A stretch of DNA of 64,000 nucleotides, taken from contig NC_011669.1 in NCBI RefSeq assembly GCF_000150955.2, positions 635,667 to 699,666 on the forward strand, in the 5' to 3' direction. This DNA comes from Phaeodactylum tricornutum CCAP 1055/1 (taxonomy: Eukaryota > Bacillariophyta > Bacillariophyceae > Surirellales > Neidiaceae). Below the pieces are notes generated by a model. The model saw only the letters and a program-made list of their open reading frames with translations, made no database searches and was not told the DNA's origin. Position 1 is the first letter of the stretch. Each line of letters opens with the position of its first letter. A program made the position numbers and the translations under genes. This document shows, in pieces, positions 20,631 to 29,544 of this stretch.

Positions 20631-21425
20631 CTACGAATCTCCTGCAGCCGCCGACTCGGCTTCCACTTGCTCTAGAACTGCCTGAGCTTCATCCTTGGTT
20701 AGAATATGATGAACGCATTGTTTGTTCTCGTCCAGTCTCATCGTAAAGAGCTCCATCTTTTCGGCAGCCGCCGCTCCCGTACCATCCATCGTTTTGTTCA
20801 AAACCTTGACGGCAAGTTTGAGACACTCCTCAACGGTCGGGACAACGGGTTCATCTCCTTCCGCCATATCGTCACTGCTATCCTTTTGGTATTCTGTCTT
20901 CAAGATACTCTTCCCGGCCTGATTGTTGGCCCCGATCACGGTCGCTTTCCACCCACTGTAATTACCAGACGGATCCGACTGATACAATTGAAAGCCAAAG
21001 TGTTCATCGTAACCCGCGAACAAGAATGCTACTCCAAACGGGCGGAGTCCACCACGCTGCGTGTAAAACTGTTTGTAATTGCAGACGTGTTCCACAAGCT
21101 GCTCCACCGGAATGGGTTCCTGATACTGATACTGGTATCGTCCCGCCCGCAGGCGGGCTTGCTCAATCAAAATGTTCGCATCGGCCGTTAAACCCGCGAC
21201 ATTGCAGGCGGCATGAGCGGCCAAGGGATACGTCTTTTCGGATGTCTTGGAAGGTGCCAGTAGACCGGACGTAATGCGGCGTTCCGAAGCCATGACAATG
21301 CCGTCCCGGGCAAGGATCCCCACGCAAGTACCGGCGTTGTTGATCGCTTCAATCGCGTATTCAACCTGATGCAGACGACCTTCCGGCGAGAAGGTCGTAG
21401 TGGAACTATCGTAACGTCGAGCCAT
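20631..21425 (-). CDS. PSMA4: 20S proteasome alpha subunit, alpha-3 type (PSMA4/PRE9)
   Basis: 264 residues, intronless. It starts with the alpha-subunit signature RRYDSSTTTFSPEGRLHQVE, continues with the conserved GLTADAN block, then QYQEPIPVEQLV and RPFGVAFLF, and the QSDPSGNYSGWKA block that marks the alpha-3/PSMA4 branch. It forms part of the outer ring of the 20S core in cytosol and nucleus. Compared with human PSMA4 it lacks the long Lys/Glu-rich C-terminal tail. The near-identity of key blocks makes the assignment secure. Confidence 0.95.
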   Translation of the reverse strand: MARRYDSSTTTFSPEGRLHQVEYAIEAINNAGTCVGILARDGIVMASERRITSGLLAPSKTSEKTYPLAAHAACNVAGLTADANILIEQARLRAGRYQYQYQEPIPVEQLVEHVCNYKQFYTQRGGLRPFGVAFLFAGYDEHFGFQLYQSDPSGNYSGWKATVIGANNQAGKSILKTEYQKDSSDDMAEGDEPVVPTVEECLKLAVKVLNKTMDGTGAAAAEKMELFTMRLDENKQCVHHILTKDEAQAVLEQVEAESAAAGDS

Positions 21426-21821
21426 TGTTAACAGTGATTCTTGGTGATAAAGAGTAGAATTGGGATGCTACCGATATCAGGAGGCGCTTTTGAACTGACT
21501 GTGAATACGGCTACCATTCAGCAGCGCTGTCAGTCAAAAACTTCATGAAGGTGAAAGGAAGTCTTGGAGACGATTCAGGCGGAACCCTCGCGAAAGATGT
21601 ACCAACCCGGAAGTAAGAATCGGTTGTTGAAACCATGATATGATGTCGTTTTAAATTGCAAAATTTAGCTCCGAATTTTGAAAGTTACCTTTTGACGGAC
21701 TATAACGCCGTCTCTCGATCGGCATCAATTGACTTTTTTCGAACGTCGATGGGCGAGAGACGACATCGAAAGTACAGAACAAGACAGATTGGCACGAAAT
21801 GGGCACTCGCTGTGTCTCAGA
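21426..21821. other. Divergent intergenic region
   Basis: Between PSMA4 (minus) and the histone deacetylase-like gene (plus). It has TGACTGTGA at about 21497, some 72 bases upstream of the PSMA4 start, and GCTGTCAGTCA near 21526. No gene seen. Confidence 0.45.
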
Positions 21822-23108
21822 ATGATTGATCAAACCAGCCGATTGTATCTGATTACTGCTTATTTTCTTGTTTTTCTCATGGCCTACATAGTACCGAAAG
21901 GTGTTGCGGCTTGGCTTTACCCCACACGTCGGTATCTATCTGGCAGCGGCGCTAGTCAAACGAGCGTTATACTGCGAAACGGGCCGTCGATCTCCTCTGC
22001 GAGGAGATGGACCGCGTCCGTCTCCGCTGAAAGTCCATCCTCGACGCACCGTCGTCCTGCTCGGCCCTTTTTTCCTATTTACTACAACGATGTCTACGAG
22101 GTAAAATTGCCCAAGAATCACCGATTTCCAATGGAAAAGTACGGCAGGGTCCGCCAGCTGGTGCAGCAATGGCTACAGAATCTTCCCGTCGACGAACAAG
22201 GCGTCGTCAACTACGAATTTCGAGTTTCTCCTCTCTCATCGATTGACGAACTCACGACGACTCACGATCCAGCGTACGTGCAGCGCTTCTTGACTGGCGA
22301 TCAGGACGAGCGCGAACTCCGCAACGTGGGATTTCCTTGGAGCCAGTCCAACGTCGACCGTTCGCTAAGTTCCACCGGAGGAACCGTCGCAGCCGCCTGC
22401 GCTGTCGTACAAGCGCGGCTTCGAGATCCTTACGGATTGCATTGGGGTGCACACGTGGCTGGAGGAACGCACCACGCCTTTTATGATCGGGGTGAAGGCT
22501 TTTGTGTATTTTCGGATATGGCCGTTGCCGCCAATGTTGTAATGAAACGCTACCCTGGTGTCGTTCGCCGGATCCTATTCCTAGATCTGGATGTCCATCA
22601 AGGGAACGGCAACGCTCTTTTGTTTCGGGACAACGACTCCGTCTTTACTTTTTCGTTGCATTGTTCGGCAAATTACTTTTCGGAAAAACAAAACTCGGAT
22701 TTGGACATTGAATTACCACCAGAGTGTAGCGACGAGACTTACTTGGTCACTCTGAAACACTGGTTAAATCGGATCGAACGCGAGGCCGAACCGTTTGATC
22801 TGGTCTTTTTTCAAGCCGGTGTCGACGTTCTGGCCCAGGATCGGCTAGGCCGAATGAGTCTGACCCCGGTCGGAGTGCAGCGACGCAATCAGCTGGTATA
22901 CGAGTTTTGTGCGTCGCAGAGTCTACCTTTGGTTATTTGTATGGGAGGAGGCTACCCCAAAAATCAGGACTGGATGCCGACCCTGGTGGCACACGCGAAT
23001 GTTTACTACCAGGCTCACCAGTTCCTTGCGGCACATTATAAGTCGTCGATGAAGGAACAAGCCGGACAAGGAACTGCCAGTGTACAAAATCAAAAGCTTG
23101 GTCTGTAA
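21822..23108 (+). CDS. Class IV (HDAC11-like) deacetylase with hydrophobic leader
   Basis: 428 residues from the ATG at 21822. The deacetylase domain starts near residue 86 and contains the full catalytic set: H217-H218 in GGTHHAF, zinc ligands D257 and H259 in DLDVHQGNG, D335 in QAGVDVL, and Y378 in MGGGYPK. The YNDVYEVKLPKNHRFPMEKY opening and the FPWS block place it in the HDAC11 / bacterial acetoin-utilisation-like group. Family enzymes remove acetyl or long-chain acyl groups from lysine. The first ~33 residues are hydrophobic and would act as a signal peptide or anchor, followed by a Ser/Arg-rich stretch, so it is probably not nuclear. The target compartment is uncertain. Confidence 0.85.
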   Translation: MIDQTSRLYLITAYFLVFLMAYIVPKGVAAWLYPTRRYLSGSGASQTSVILRNGPSISSARRWTASVSAESPSSTHRRPARPFFPIYYNDVYEVKLPKNHRFPMEKYGRVRQLVQQWLQNLPVDEQGVVNYEFRVSPLSSIDELTTTHDPAYVQRFLTGDQDERELRNVGFPWSQSNVDRSLSSTGGTVAAACAVVQARLRDPYGLHWGAHVAGGTHHAFYDRGEGFCVFSDMAVAANVVMKRYPGVVRRILFLDLDVHQGNGNALLFRDNDSVFTFSLHCSANYFSEKQNSDLDIELPPECSDETYLVTLKHWLNRIEREAEPFDLVFFQAGVDVLAQDRLGRMSLTPVGVQRRNQLVYEFCASQSLPLVICMGGGYPKNQDWMPTLVAHANVYYQAHQFLAAHYKSSMKEQAGQGTASVQNQKLGL

Positions 23109-23170: not shown

Positions 23171-23243
23171 AAAAAAGGAGGACTATTGTCAGGCCAGAAT
23201 CGTCCATTGAGAGCGACTCAGCCGTCATTCCGTCTCCATATTT
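23171..23243 (-). promoter_or_regulatory. Candidate SECIS element in the 3' UTR
   Basis: On the minus strand, starting about 70 bases after the stop codon at 23307, I can draw helix I GGAGAC/GTCCTCC (one bulge), an internal loop GGA/AATA, the quartet AUGA (23225-23228) facing UGAC (23188-23191) with tandem G-A pairs, and helix II GGCTGAGTCG/CGATTCTGGCC with one bulged C. The 11-nt apical loop CTCTCAATGGA carries the AA pair. This is the eukaryotic SECIS plan. The AA sits 16 nt from the AUGA, slightly farther than usual. Confidence 0.75.
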
Positions 23244-23306: not shown

Positions 23307-24270
23307 TCATGTGCTGAGGTCGGTGACTTCCACGCTCAATCGTTTCGGGTGAGACCCCAAAATATCCGCAAATACGGCACTCCCCTTCAACGAGCCGCGC
23401 AGTTCAATTTCGCGAAAAATGTTCACGAAAACGTCGGCATGGGCTGCTCCGTCCACGACGGTTGTTCCTTCCACAATGAATTTAGGAATTCCGTGAACTC
23501 CAAGTTCATCCAGGGCCATCAAAGCTCGCTTAATTTCCGCGCGGCCTTCCGTGCCGTTCAGAAATGTCAACAATGCGTCCGATGTAGGTGCTTTGGCGTG
23601 TGGCAGGATTCGACCGAGCGCTTCCGCAACCGTTGTGGCGAGACGCGGACGATCGTTCAACGAGTACCCATCGACAAAATAGTACTCATTCAGTACATCA
23701 TATATAGCCTCACTTATATCCAATCCGTAGGTTTTTCCGAGATGTTGAATCAATCGATGCGACGCCATGGAATTTGCCGCCAATCGATCCAGATTAAAGT
23801 GCGGAATGCCGGCTGCCTGACCCCGACCCTTTAAATCGTGACGTTTCTTTTGGCTTTCCCAGCCTTGCCTACCGCCCCACTTTTTCACGAGGCGTTCACG
23901 GTTGGATTCGATAAAGGTCCTGCTTTCGTCGTAGTGGGGTTCGAGAAAGAACGGTACCCGAAGGACGGCAAACGCCAAAGGGCGTGGGGCATTGGCATTC
24001 GGTTCACTCAAAATGTGCTGAATCGCACGATTCAAATATTTCTTGCCAATGTACCCTGTAGACGTACGAGAGATTATTCGGGTGAGGACGAAATAGAATT
24101 GCAAAGGTCAGAAGCACAGTTCCGCTACTCGGGCACATCGTACCGTTGGGTCACAAAGTATCCGAAACTAATTCCACCGGAATGACGAGTGGCGCTCTCT
24201 TGTTCGATTCCAAAGAAAAGACGCGCCGTGAAAGTAGCTTTGTACCGCGTTGAATGGTGAACGTTCGCAT
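23307..24270 (-). CDS. Candidate selenoprotein, DsbA/FrnE-like thioredoxin-fold
   Basis: Exons 24144-24270 and 23307-24055 with an 88-nt GT-AG intron (phase 1) give 291 residues if TGA codon 40 (24151-24153) is read as selenocysteine. An in-frame stop lies two codons upstream of the ATG. The N-terminus is basic and likely organellar. Then IPVELVSDTL-U-P-N-G-YIGKKYL aligns exactly with the FrnE/DsbA active site, where the usual order is SDxxCPWC(Y/F)IGK. So Sec takes the first Cys place and Gly the second. The rest is the helical insert and the family motif GVHGIPKFIVEG (the cis-Pro region) near residue 245. A SECIS-like hairpin lies in the 3' flank. Members are thiol oxidoreductases or isomerases; partner unknown. 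If TGA is a plain stop, exon 1 would encode a 39-residue peptide. Confidence 0.78.
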
Positions 24271-24602: not shown

Positions 24603-27509
24603 ATGGCGACAGCCCCCGCTGCCAATTCCACACAGCACCAGGGGCCCAAGCTCCCTCCTCATAGTGGAGATGTAGATGAGGAGCTAGGAAGAATTCGTTT
24701 AGCTTTGGCAGCGGTCTTTTCTCCTTCTAATTCCGGAAATGGCTCGGAACAATGGTGGGCCCAACGACAACTTGCCGATCAGTATTTGACTTCGTTCCAA
24801 GCCACTTCAGTTTCCTGGATGGTTTGTGATCGTCTGTTACAAGGAGATATTTCCGACGTCGGTAGTGACCCGCAAAAGGTAGCCCAGCAGCAGCAGTTTC
24901 GCTTCTTTGCAGCGCAGACGCTGCACACAAAATGCCGAGCCGACATTGACCAGTTGCCCAAGACGCCCTGCCATCCCTACGGGATTCCTTATTGGCACAT
25001 CTGAATCGATACGCCGCAGACGGATCTGAAGGGCCTTTATCGACCCGCTTAGCTATGTGCATTTCGGCGCTTGCTGTACAGATGCAGTGGACTACCGTTG
25101 TTTCGGACTTGCTCGCGACACCTCAGAATGTGCATGTTGTCATGTTGATACTCCGGGCGTTGCCGGAAGAGTGTGCGTCAGATCGACTCGTGCTAGCCGA
25201 CGATGCCTATCGCTTCAAAATGCGTGATCATTTGGTATCCTTTGCACCCAACGTGTTGCAATTTCTGCATGCGCACGTTACGGACGCCTCACGAGTGCTC
25301 AAGGTACTGCACCTTTGGATTCGATACGTCCCGGTGCATCCCCAGACCTTGGTGGAATCGCCTTTGTTGAATGCCGCCGTCCAGGCGTTGAGACAACCAG
25401 CCTACATTGAACTCGCCAGCGACGTGATTGTGGAAATTCTTGCGCATGTATCCATCCCATCACTACGGCAACGAAGGGTTGGTTCGACATATGATTCCTC
25501 TCTTAAGTTCACTGCCCCTGGACGAAGCCTTGCAATCGGACGATGAAGACGTATTGCGTGCCTATTGTCGAGTTGTGACGGAAATGGGAGAGTCCTACAT
25601 GAGTTTAATTCTGTCGCCGCAATACCTGGAAGCGTCGCAACTCGTATCCTGGGTACTAAAATGCTCGGGGATGGCGAATCAAGAGATTGCTTCGATTACG
25701 TTGCACTTCTGGTACCGATTGGTCATGGACCTTGAGAGTGTCGACCCATACGATTGGCGGCAAGAATTGATCGATGCGTATACCCCTCATTTGCTTCAGC
25801 TTATCGATGTTTGCATCAAATCGTTGATGCGGTATCCAGCCGATATGGATACAATCCCAGAAGATCTGCTTGACGAGCTTACTCGGCATCGCTTTTATGT
25901 CGCCGAGACAGTAGAAGACTGCTGTAGATTATTGGGGGGGCAGAATGTGTTGCAGCGGATAGGAAATCTCCTGCAACAAGAGATTCATGCCGCCTCAGGC
26001 AACCAGGTGTGGCAAGGTCTTGAATCTTGCTTGGCGTGCATCGGTGCCATTCACCGATTTGTTCCGAGTGATGAAGCCGAACTCTTGCCTCTGACCTTTC
26101 AGCTTGTTCCGCAACTACCAACGGAAATCCGGCCACTTCGATACACGGCCAGTAAGACGATTGGAAAGTTTGCCTCCTGGTTGGCTTTTCATCCTCACTT
26201 GTTACAACCACTGATGCCATATTTGGCGCAAGGACTATCCGTTCCCGAATGCGCGCCTGCTGCTGCCGTTGCTATTAAGGAACTCTGTGAATGTTCCAAC
26301 CAGTCGTTTGCGATTGCTGAACCCGTCATGGAGCTATTCCAAGGTCTTACACCGGGAACTCTAGAAGTCGAGGACGAGTTACAAATTCTGGAAGGCGTTT
26401 GCCGCGCTCTATCAAGGCAAATGCAAGACGCTCGTGGACGTGGAAACGATACACAGGCCGCCTTGACTCGTTTGGCACAGCCTATCGGTACGAGATTGGC
26501 AGCGAGCGTCTCCGAACCCAATTCTTCGCCGCGCCGAATCATCCCGGAAATAGAGCGATTGACTGTGCTTGTTCGGTATTTAGTTATACTTTACGATGGC
26601 AATGCAACTACAGGATTGCACCCGATGTTGGAGCTAACGACGTCGATTTGGTCGTTTCTCGACGCTGCCGTCATTCGATTTCCAGGTGACATTGTGTTAG
26701 CGGAAAAGATTTGTCGACTGCACAAACACTCACTCCGAAGTTGTGGTGCACAAGCCTACAGTCCTATGCTGGATCGTTTGATGACACAGCTTGTTCAAAG
26801 TTTTGAGCGATCACACCAGTCTCCGTTTCTATATGCAGCGAGCATTTGCATTGCCGAGTATGGATCCGACTCCACCTACTCGAATAGGCTACTTGGTATG
26901 GTGTCGGCAATGGCAACGACTTGCTTCTCATTCCTTCGAAACGTTGACGAGCTGACTGCTCATCCAGATGTTGTCGAGGAGCTTTTCTATATGATGGGTC
27001 GTATGATGAGCAACTGCCCTGATCCGCTGGTGCAAAGTCCCCTGCTTCGATCCCTGCTACAATGCGCTGCGGTGGGTATGCAGTTGGACCACCACGGAGC
27101 CAATAAAGGAACACTCAAATTTTTGGAGAATACCATATCGTACGGTTTGTCCTTGCGAGAACAGAAGAAACCAGCGTGCCAAGCACCACTTGAGGAGGCA
27201 CTTTCGCAGGAAGGTCAGGCCATTGTAGTAAATTTAATGAAAGCCATGATGGGCGATCTCCCGGAGTATGGCAACAGTCAGATTCCTGAAATTTTGTGGA
27301 AGCTCAATCTGCTGTGTCCTGGGCTTTTAACTCAGTGGCTTCATTCGGCGTTTGCTGGGACGCTGACGCTCCCGGAGGGAGCAAAGAACGATTTTATTGC
27401 GGCCTTGGATACCGGCTTGGCTCGTGACGAGTTTAGTATGGCGGTGCGGGCGTTTCAAACCGCGTGCGAGCGACAGCGACGGCTGCGAAAAGGACCGCGG
27501 CGCAACTGA
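24603..27509 (+). CDS. Transportin-3/MTR10-like karyopherin, with two apparent compensating frameshifts
   Basis: A HEAT-repeat nuclear import receptor of the TNPO3/importin-13 type. The start is probably the ATG at 24603 (24468 is an alternative). The first 120 residues (importin N-terminal helices, QWWAQRQLADQYL) run in one frame. Near 24965 the frame must change by one base to reach DALPSLRDSLLAHLNRYA, the conserved SLRDSLL block. Near 25444 it must change back to read LRMYPSHHYGNEGLV. No GT-AG intron fits either spot, and the protein is conserved across both joins (about 965 residues in all). The family carries SR-rich splicing factors and other cargo into the nucleus. Sequencing errors or a real allele are both possible; a pseudogene is unlikely, since the rest is open. 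Confidence 0.72.
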
Positions 27510-27680: not shown

Positions 27681-29544
27681 CTAACGCGTCTCGATGATAC
27701 CGGCCGCAATGAGTTTGTTGATCTTTTCCCGAACCAGTGGATCCGCCATAGCTTGTTGACCGGCCGCTGGATTCTCACCCAAATCTTTCAAGACTTGCTG
27801 CATCACCGGATCCTGTAGAATGGCTTGAATTTGCGGATCCGCCATGGCGTGTGCCGCCTGCTCTTTCTTTTCATCGTCCGTCATGTTTTGTCGACCCATT
27901 TGAATCTGGTACGAACACTTACGCAGTCCATCTTTACATACCGTATTGTCCGGATCCAGTTCCAAACCGTGTTTGTACGAATCCATTGCCTTGTGATACT
28001 CCTTCATGACCATTTCGATGTCTCCCTTGCGGGCCCAAGCTTTGACGTACTTGGGATCAATTTCGATCGCGGTTTCGATTTGACGCTGGGCGCCGGAGAA
28101 ATCCATGACTTTACAGAGTGCTGCGGCCAGGTTGTTGCGAATAGGGGCATTTTTCGGTGCGCGCTTCACGGCATCTTCGTAGCACTGCACGGCTTTGGCC
28201 CAGTCCTGGGCCCGGAAGTGTTCGTTGCCCTGTTGTTTGGCCTCTTCCGCTTTGGCGTCGTCCTGATACGACTGTGCGTCGGATTTTTTCTTTTCCAATT
28301 CTAGAGTTTTCAATAATCGCTGCGTATTGGCATCGTACGACTCGAGCTGGGCTTCCTGACACATTTCAATGGCCTTGCCAATATCCTTCATCTTTTGGTA
28401 GGCCTTGGCGGCGCGTGCGTACGCCTTGGCCCGATCTTCGAACGGTCCCATGTGTTCCTTGCCAATTGCGACGGCCTGTAGACACATGTCGACGCATTCT
28501 TGGTATTTTTTCTGAGTGAACAAGACGGCCGCCTTGTTGTTGTAAAACGTCATGTTGGTGGGATCCAGGGCAATGGCGGCGTCGTAGGCTTCCAGAGCTT
28601 CGTCCAACTGTTTGGCCTTGTACAGTTCGTTACCGCGTTCCTTTTCGAGTTTCGCTTTTTTCTGCGCTTCCTTCTTTTCGCGTTCCGCCGGTGTCAAGTC
28701 GGACCAATCTTCTTCGACTTCTTCCATGGGTTCCGGTTCAGACGCGGCCGCTTTACTACTCGTTGGGCCGTTGGTGGTTGCGGCCGACGATCGGGTGGAG
28801 TCTCCCTCCTCGTCTCCGCCATCTTCTGCGGCCATCATTGCGGTCAGGAGCTGCATCATTTTCGGGTCGCTCATCATGGTGGGTAGTAGATTGGGATTCT
28901 GTTGTATCATTTTGATTTTCCCCATGACTTGAGGATCGTTGAGAAGGGGACGGAGTTTCGGATTGAGAGCCATTTGCGCCATCATTGCGGGCGAAAAGAG
29001 TCCTCCCCCGGCCCCGAACGCACCCCCACTACCACCCATCGGCTGCTCCTTTTCCTTTTGCACCTGCGCCAGTCCTTTCGTGAGCGCGGGGTCTCCGGGA
29101 AACTTGGCGAGTCCTTCGTTGTAGGCCGCGATGGAGTCGTTGTAGCGGTGGAGTGCGTGCAGGGCGGCGCCCTTGCGCGAATATCCCTTGACAAAGGCGG
29201 GTTGCAAATTGAGACAGGCCTGTGCGTCTTCGAGAGCGTTGTGGGCGTCGCCCTTTTGCAGATAGGCCGCCGAGCGATTGCTAAAGTAAACGTGACTGGC
29301 TCCGTCGAGGCGAATCGCGGAGGTGTAGTGCTCGATCGCTTGCGTGACGTTGCCGGCCTGTAAGGCGGCGTTGCCTTGGGCTTTGAACTGTGTATATTAG
29401 CACGTTTGGTATACGGGAGGGCAACGGTAAGTATACGACGACGACGGCATTCGTTGGGATCAATATGGACACCATCGTTCGAGTAACACGAGACAGAGTT
29501 CGTCCGTGAAAAGTGCAACGTACCTCTTCCGCAGTCGTCGCCAT
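27681..29544 (-). CDS. STI1: Hsp70/Hsp90 co-chaperone STI1/HOP (two exons)
   Basis: A 21-nt first coding exon (29524-29544, MATTAEE) is spliced over a 136-nt GT-AG intron to 27681-29387, giving 575 residues. The order is TPR1 (FKAQGNAALQAG onward), first Asp-Pro-rich DP1 domain (NPKLRPLLNDPQ), a Ser/Glu linker, TPR2A (ERGNELYKAKQLDEALEAYD), TPR2B (EAKQQGNEHFRAQDWAKAV) and DP2 at the end (ADPQIQAILQDPVMQQVLKD). STI1 bridges Hsp70 and Hsp90 in the cytosol during client folding. Without the first exon the protein would lack a start codon before TPR1, so the splice is required. Confidence 0.92.

What the first reader, a model, noticed from the sequence alone, without database searches (positions are those of the whole stretch)
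23307..24270. Candidate selenoprotein: in-frame TGA at the active-site cysteine of a DsbA/FrnE-like protein
On the minus strand the ATG at 24270 opens a frame reading IPVELVSDTL, then TGA, then CCC AAC G at a GTACGATG donor. Removing 88 nt to the CTACAG acceptor gives U-P-N-G-YIGKKYL. This aligns without gaps to the family's C-P-W-C-(Y/F)IGK site, so the TGA sits at the first catalytic cysteine and the splice phase works only if TGA is read through. The second cysteine is Gly, giving a UxxG site. Standard gene callers would start the protein inside exon 2 and miss the active site.
Basis: partly seen in the sequence, partly recalled or inferred. Interest (0 to 1): 0.92.

Follow-up and report, generated by a model that had tools for sequence, protein, structure and literature searches.

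The report
Probable selenocysteine enzyme, FrnE/DsbA-like
A gene in this eukaryotic DNA carries a UGA "stop" codon exactly where its relatives have their key catalytic cysteine, so it most likely makes a selenium-containing redox enzyme of a kind already known in algae, here with the partner cysteine lost as well.

Summary
On the minus strand, exon 1 (24270-24144), an 88-nt GT-AG intron (24143-24056) and exon 2 (24055-23307) give a 291-codon frame with one internal stop, TGA at codon 40 (24153-24151). The product is an FrnE-like DsbA protein. Codon 40 aligns without gaps to the first catalytic Cys, present in all 88 bacterial relatives examined; of all exon-1 positions it is where Cys raises the family score most. 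None of 30 TGA-skipping splices enumerated keeps the YIGK helix start; the next in-frame ATG is codon 139. Of 27 columns at least 95% conserved, 21 are kept; three of six changes are at the active site (C to TGA, W to N, C to G). The frame has no Cys codon.

A SECIS-like hairpin starts about 70 nt after the stop, but its AA is 16 nt from the quartet instead of the published 10-13, Rfam gives no hit, and comparable hairpins arise in 1.5-3% of shuffles. Selenocysteine is likely, not shown. Sec-containing DsbA/FrnE proteins are already reported in algae, so this is a probable further member, unusual in its UPNG site and lack of cysteine. The organism was not verified.

The parts
24144..24270 (-). 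exon 1: ATG, basic N-terminal extension (about 28 aa), the segment IPVELVSDTL, TGA codon 40, PN and the first base of Gly43
   Evidence: HMM gain 12.5 bits; 1 of 10,000 random segments as good
24151..24153 (-). in-frame TGA, codon 40, in the column of the first catalytic cysteine (CPWC or CPFC in relatives)
   Evidence: C in 87 of the 87 relatives whose BLAST alignment covers the column; the 88th, L007, shows C in the MAFFT alignment; Cys-substitution scan peaks at 40
24056..24143 (-). 88-nt GT-AG intron, phase 1, splitting the Gly43 codon
   Evidence: among the joins enumerated only this one puts VSDTL-x-PNG directly before YIGKKYL; not tested with transcripts
23307..24055 (-). exon 2: rest of the DsbA/FrnE-like domain, no internal stop, ending in TGA at 23309-23307
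   Evidence: AlphaFold mean pLDDT 84; best PDB folds are FrnE entries
23177..23237 (-). SECIS-like hairpin in the 3' flank: helix I, open internal loop with AUGA (23228-23225) facing UGAC (23191-23188), 10-bp helix II with one bulge, 11-nt apical loop with AA (23208-23207)
   Evidence: helix II pair probabilities 0.87-1.0 in a 551-nt context; AA spacing 16 nt is outside the published 10-13

Best explanation
Shown by sequence or model: reading frame, homology, fold of exon 2, TGA at the catalytic Cys column, Gly in place of the second Cys, absence of any Cys codon. Inferred: splicing, Sec insertion, SECIS function, chemistry and location. Proposed mechanism: the Sec40 selenolate at the start of the first helix, facing the conserved proline loop (P233), attacks disulfides or peroxides. 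Having no resolving cysteine of its own, the enzyme is released from the mixed selenosulfide or selenenic state by an outside thiol such as glutathione, as a single-nucleophile enzyme. The arginine-, serine- and threonine-rich first ~28 residues would suit mitochondrial import (by eye; no predictor run).
For: TGA lies in the column of the first catalytic Cys in 88 of 88 relatives and is the exon-1 position where Cys raises the family score most (+7.3 bits over X; next best +0.4). A chance nonsense change would seldom fall there: 99 other single-base routes to a stop exist in 86 other codons, 18 of them to TGA. The remaining frame is intact, and 21 of 27 columns conserved at 95% or more are kept. 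None of the 30 TGA-skipping joins enumerated keeps YIGK, and the next in-frame ATG is codon 139, so without readthrough a complete domain is hard to make. SECIS-like hairpin with AUGA/UGA facing each other in an internal loop; comparable hairpins in 1.5% of 1500 240-nt and 3.0% of 600 520-nt shuffles. Sec-containing DsbA is named among the most widely distributed Sec proteins of algae, and diatoms have 20-44 selenoprotein genes (PMC7539508); Sec-FrnE in Mamiellophyceae (PMC6627142); Sec at the upstream Cys in Ciona and Branchiostoma DsbA (PMC2874816).
Against: The SECIS-like element misses the published 10-13 nt AA spacing (16 nt), a scan with that spacing finds nothing in the 520 nt after the stop, and Rfam reports no SECIS. 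The two strands of the window hold 7 hairpins as good by the same cut, this one and six others, three of the others with the canonical spacing; the spacing was relaxed after the hairpin was seen. The second catalytic Cys is also gone (Gly) and the position of W42 is Asn, which a decaying active site could also show. The 2007 list of 16 Thalassiosira pseudonana selenoproteins names no DsbA (PMC2375036). No eukaryotic relative, transcript, peptide, tRNA-Sec or SBP2 was available; the window has no tRNA gene by ARAGORN.
Confidence: 0.8

Rival explanations
1. A recently inactivated gene (pseudogene or null allele): the catalytic Cys codon mutated to TGA and the protein is no longer made beyond 39 residues.
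For: Three active-site residues (40, 42, 43) all differ from the family; SECIS support is only partial.
Against: No other stop or frameshift in 291 codons (one search lists codon 40 as the only internal stop); 21 of 27 strongly conserved columns kept; GC3 of both exons (0.52, 0.54) matches the two neighbouring genes (0.53, 0.52); a random single-base stop had 99 other routes.
Confidence: 0.1
2. Sequencing or assembly error: the real codon is TGC or TGT and the protein is an ordinary Cys enzyme with a CPNG site.
For: One base separates TGC/TGT from TGA; no reads were available to check.
Against: An error hitting just this codon is improbable (99 other single-base routes to a stop), and Sec DsbA proteins are documented in algae.
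Confidence: 0.05
3. The TGA is removed by alternative splicing, or lies in a transcript leader, and a shorter Cys-free protein with a non-redox role is made from exon 2.
For: 30 frame-keeping joins that skip the TGA exist on paper, e.g. donor 24154 to acceptor 24007.
Against: All 30 delete YIGK, of which Y44, G46 and K47 are at least 95% conserved; the next in-frame ATG is codon 139, inside the domain; exon 1 carries a family-matching segment. Donors upstream of 24210 and other start codons were not enumerated.
Confidence: 0.04
4. UGA-C leaky readthrough by a near-cognate tRNA, with an ordinary amino acid inserted at a low level.
For: The codon is followed by C, a context recalled as relatively leaky.
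Against: Would not explain why the stop falls exactly on the catalytic Cys column.
Confidence: 0.01

Closest known systems
Sec-containing DsbA / FrnE of algae (PMC7539508; PMC6627142)
   Same: Same kind of protein (DsbA/FrnE), Sec form reported in algae; the first study covers diatoms
   Different: I did not see in the first study which algae, or whether any diatom, carry the Sec form, nor their motifs (figures, supplements and the SPDB database not readable), so whether this gene is already listed is unknown
DsbA 1 and 2 (UxxC) and DsbA 3 (UxxV) of the Global Ocean Sampling set (PMC2398784, table passage)
   Same: PF01323 with Sec at the first position; DsbA 3 also lacks the second Cys
   Different: Tabulated as prokaryotic; UxxV rather than UxxG
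DsbA-like protein form 2, motif DxxUP, PF01323 (PMC13188914, table passage)
   Same: D37-T-L-[TGA40]-P41 here fits DxxUP letter for letter
   Different: Prokaryotic; its sequence and its residue at the second Cys position were not seen
Deinococcus radiodurans FrnE (PDB 5cnw, 5co3) and Streptomyces SCO1869 (3gl5)
   Same: Best sequence-profile and fold matches
   Different: 3gl5 has CPWC where this protein has [TGA]PNG (alignment); this protein has no cysteine at all
2-hydroxychromene-2-carboxylate isomerase-like protein (3fz5), same superfamily
   Same: Related fold
   Different: Much weaker match (profile E 1.6e-5; Foldseek E 0.2)

Membership tests
FrnE-like DsbA family (PF01323) | Sequence similarity over the whole domain | tested here: met
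   Pfam DSBA 28.1 bits, cut-off 25.6 (with C typed at residue 40); 3gl5 E 5.4e-6; 118 plasmid records at E <= 1e-3
FrnE-like DsbA family (PF01323) | DsbA/FrnE fold | tested here: met
   AlphaFold of exon 2 only, pLDDT 84, pTM 0.80; best PDB matches FrnE and SCO1869, TM 0.70-0.77
FrnE-like DsbA family (PF01323) | CxxC active site | tested here: not met
   [TGA]-P-N-G here against CPWC or CPFC in the relatives; hence a relative with an altered site, not a typical member
FrnE-like DsbA family (PF01323) | Proline of the loop facing the active site (cis-Pro, recalled) | tested here: met
   P233 kept; invariant in A1 and A2, at least 95% in 88 relatives
Eukaryotic selenoprotein | In-frame UGA aligned to Cys of homologues with conserved flanks | tested here: met
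Eukaryotic selenoprotein | SECIS element in the 3' UTR meeting the published NTGA-(10-13)-AA/CC-(15-39)-GA pattern and fold | tested here: not met
   None in 520 nt with that spacing; one strong hairpin with spacing 16; no Rfam SECIS. My scan is a home-made version of the published rule; SECISearch itself was not available
Eukaryotic selenoprotein | Any SECIS-like hairpin (quartet, helix II, apical AA) | tested here: inconclusive
   Present at 23237-23177; comparable in 1.5-3% of shuffles and six times elsewhere in the window; cuts set after seeing it
Eukaryotic selenoprotein | Sec machinery (tRNA-Sec, SBP2, eEFSec, SelD) in the organism | not testable with these tools
   No genome held. Phaeodactylum SELO with a likely Sec is reported (PMC3281104), but the window's species is unverified
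Eukaryotic selenoprotein | Selenium in the protein | not testable with these tools
   Needs 75Se labelling or mass spectrometry

The most novel reading that the evidence does not exclude
A cysteine-free FrnE/DsbA enzyme with a single selenocysteine in a UPNG site as its only redox residue: a one-selenol enzyme derived from a two-cysteine one, working with glutathione instead of an internal resolving cysteine, and driven by a SECIS with displaced apical adenines.
Probability: 0.45. Interest if true: 0.5.

Novelty: new variant of a known kind. Interest (0 to 1): 0.42.

Why it matters
If right, the protein would lack its active site unless UGA is recoded, so ordinary annotation would be likely to misread the gene and miss the enzyme. 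The protein is a clean test case: one Sec, no Cys, so any selenium- or thiol-type activity must come from residue 40. It would also show how a two-cysteine enzyme can become a one-selenol enzyme, and whether SECIS elements with a longer quartet-to-AA distance work in this lineage. It does not overturn anything: Sec-containing DsbA/FrnE proteins in algae are already reported, and Sec forms without the second Cys have a prokaryotic precedent (UxxV).

Tried and rejected
Rfam searches for a SECIS at gathering and at loose thresholds gave nothing relevant. A SECIS scan with the published spacing gave no candidate in the 520 nt after the stop; an even looser scan of 1000 nt added only a weak one at 22813. 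Viral contigs gave no relative by protein, by alignment or by a TGA-Pro-Asn-Gly DNA pattern. The phage collection gave two weak hits, not fetched. The PDB hits to designed repeat proteins (PPR designs and 4ozs; no single stretch passes on its own) were taken as artefacts and ignored. NCBIfam gave no family. Exon 1 null: the first 2000 random segments gave 2 as good, both inside the gene itself, so the null was redone without the gene.

Papers were seen as search listings, passages or single sections, none whole; supplements were not readable. PMC7678280 (passages) does not list Phaeodactylum among its 22 tRNA-Sec species, which would count against the reading if that is the species; but its list also lacks Ostreococcus tauri, which has 26 selenoproteins (PMC2375036), so it was not relied on. 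PMC4342817 says nothing on SelB in Phaeodactylum in the passages seen. PMC5330540 and PMC6254913 and PMC9402790 added nothing on this family in diatoms in the passages seen. A search for 'UxxG' with 'selenocysteine' found one paper, in whose passages no DsbA has that motif. A search for DsbA, selenoprotein and diatom together found only PMC7539508.

Full report
Observation. ATG at 24270 opens a frame that meets TGA at codon 40 (24153-24151); removing 24143-24056 (GTACGATG...CTACAG, 88 nt) joins codon 43 (G|GG) to TACATTGGC and continues without a stop to TGA at 23309-23307. An in-frame stop lies two codons before the ATG. The frame is 291 codons long and contains no cysteine codon.

More than chance. 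I built an HMM from the BLAST-aligned segments of 88 relatives, without the window protein. Exon 2 alone scores 93.2 bits, exon 1 plus exon 2 with X at codon 40 105.7, and with Cys there 113.0; when every exon-1 residue is replaced by Cys in turn, position 40 is best and the next, position 42, scores 106.1. Of 10,000 random 42-codon segments of the window outside the gene, 1 does as well as exon 1 with X. A first null of 2000 gave 2, both lying inside the gene itself.

Splicing alternatives. Enumerating GT/GC donors at 24210-24051 with acceptors 40-400 nt downstream, 30 TGA-skipping joins keep a frame of more than 200 codons, but every one starts exon 2 at 24042 or later and so deletes YIGK. 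Y44, G46 and K47 are each at least 95% conserved. In-frame ATGs are codons 1, 139 and 222, so a downstream ATG cannot make the whole domain. No transcript was available.

Family. Pfam DSBA (PF01323) is met at 28.1 bits against a cut-off of 25.6 (Cys typed at codon 40). A profile of the window protein with four relatives finds Deinococcus FrnE (E 2.4e-48) and SCO1869 (3.6e-39) first among solved structures; the protein alone finds SCO1869 at 5.4e-6 and FrnE at 0.006. AlphaFold on exon 2 with 25 relatives gives mean pLDDT 84 and pTM 0.80; the six PDB matches with E below 0.001 are FrnE entries and SCO1869, TM-scores 0.70-0.77.

The site. tblastn against plasmids found 118 records; I fetched 8, and all 8 have C-P-W/F-C at residues 40-43. 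Its patterns include CP[WN][CG]Y[IL]GK, so cysteine in those 80 is partly built in; the 8 plasmid relatives are free of that bias. Over all 88, BLAST covers the site in 87: CPWC in 86, CPFC in 1; the 88th, L007, shows CPFC in the MAFFT alignment. Of 27 columns conserved at 95% or more, the window protein keeps 21 and differs at 40 (C to TGA), 42 (W to N), 43 (C to G), 136 (P to A), 138 (T to S) and 232 (V to I). Half of the changes are at the redox site.

Could it be a dead gene? There are 99 other single-base routes to a stop, in 86 codons, 18 of them to TGA, so a random nonsense change would seldom land on the catalytic Cys. GC3 of both exons (0.52, 0.54) resembles the two neighbours (0.53, 0.52). 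Against this, the changes at 42 and 43 could also mark a decaying site. No population or sister-species data were available.

SECIS. In the 3' flank a hairpin folds stably: helix I (from 23237/23177 inward), an open internal loop with AUGA facing UGAC, a 10-bp helix II with one bulge (pair probabilities 0.87-1.0 in a 551-nt context) and an 11-nt loop with AA. As plain folding energy it is not exceptional: z-scores of -2.1, -1.1 and -0.9 for three cuts of the region. The published search pattern asks for 10-13 nt between quartet and AA (PMC2375036, section read); here it is 16. With 10-13 nothing is found in the 520 nt after the stop; with 10-17 only this hairpin. Hairpins of similar quality occur in 1.5% of 1500 shuffles of 240 nt and 3.0% of 600 shuffles of 520 nt. 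On both strands of the window the same cut gives 7: this one and six others, three of those with canonical spacing. A second, energy-based cut gives 0.13% and 0.17% of the shuffles (2 of 1500, 1 of 600) but again 7 in the window, this one included. Cuts were set after the hairpin had been seen. Rfam reports no SECIS. I count this as moderate support at best.

What is known. Sec-containing DsbA is named among the most widely distributed Sec proteins of algae, and diatoms are given 20-44 selenoprotein genes (PMC7539508; passages and section 5); that any diatom has the Sec DsbA was not seen in the text. Sec-FrnE is reported in Mamiellophyceae and M. viride (PMC6627142, passages). In Ciona and Branchiostoma DsbA the upstream Cys is Sec, and the part with the Sec codon had been annotated as UTR, a close parallel to this gene (PMC2874816, passages). 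Ocean metagenomes list DsbA 1 and 2 with UxxC and DsbA 3 with UxxV (PMC2398784, table passage), and a review lists a prokaryotic DsbA-like form 2 with DxxUP (PMC13188914), which D37-T-L-[TGA]-P41 fits. So loss of the second Cys in a Sec DsbA has a precedent. I found no DsbA with UxxG in print. The 2007 T. pseudonana list of 16 selenoproteins has no DsbA (PMC2375036). Phaeodactylum SELO with a likely Sec is reported (PMC3281104), but I could not verify that the window is a diatom's; the neighbours are eukaryotic (HDAC, transportin-3/importin-13, proteasome alpha).

Mechanism. Most likely Sec40 is the single nucleophile. With no cysteine in the chain it cannot form an internal selenosulfide and must be resolved from outside, glutathione being the simplest choice. 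This is inferred from the residue content; no activity was tested. Peroxidase, disulfide reductase and isomerase roles are all open. The basic N-terminal extension looks like a mitochondrial presequence by eye only.

Verdict. Observation confirmed; interpretation probable (0.8) but not proven; a likely new variant of an already known kind of algal selenoprotein.

Noticed in passing
21696-23105 (+): Convergent histone deacetylase gene (PF00850, E 7e-45); its stop codon (23106-23108) lies 198 nt from that of the DsbA-like gene, so the two 3' UTRs are short or overlap, which bounds where a SECIS is likely to lie.
   Followed up: partly
25428-27506 (+); probable 5' part from about 24600, by eye: Transportin-3/importin-13-like gene (on 25428-27506 only), divergent from the DsbA-like gene; its frame seems to change near 25,430-25,550, perhaps an intron (by eye).
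   Followed up: partly
20634-21467 (-) and 27684-29396 (-): Proteasome alpha subunit, and an STI1/HOP-like TPR protein: ordinary eukaryotic neighbours.
   Followed up: partly
24141-24124 (-): Read straight on in frame, the intron encodes TMCPSS, a Cys-Pro close behind the TGA. It looks like coincidence: the unspliced frame ends soon after.
   Followed up: partly
24270-24187 (-): The first ~28 residues are rich in Arg, Ser and Thr with no acidic residue before Glu21, like a mitochondrial targeting peptide; no predictor was available.
   Followed up: no
21293 (+), 31272 (+), 50530 (-), 27777 (-), 18369 (-), 4241 (-): Six other SECIS-like hairpins in the window pass the same cut; whether any lies behind a TGA-interrupted gene was not examined.
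   Followed up: no
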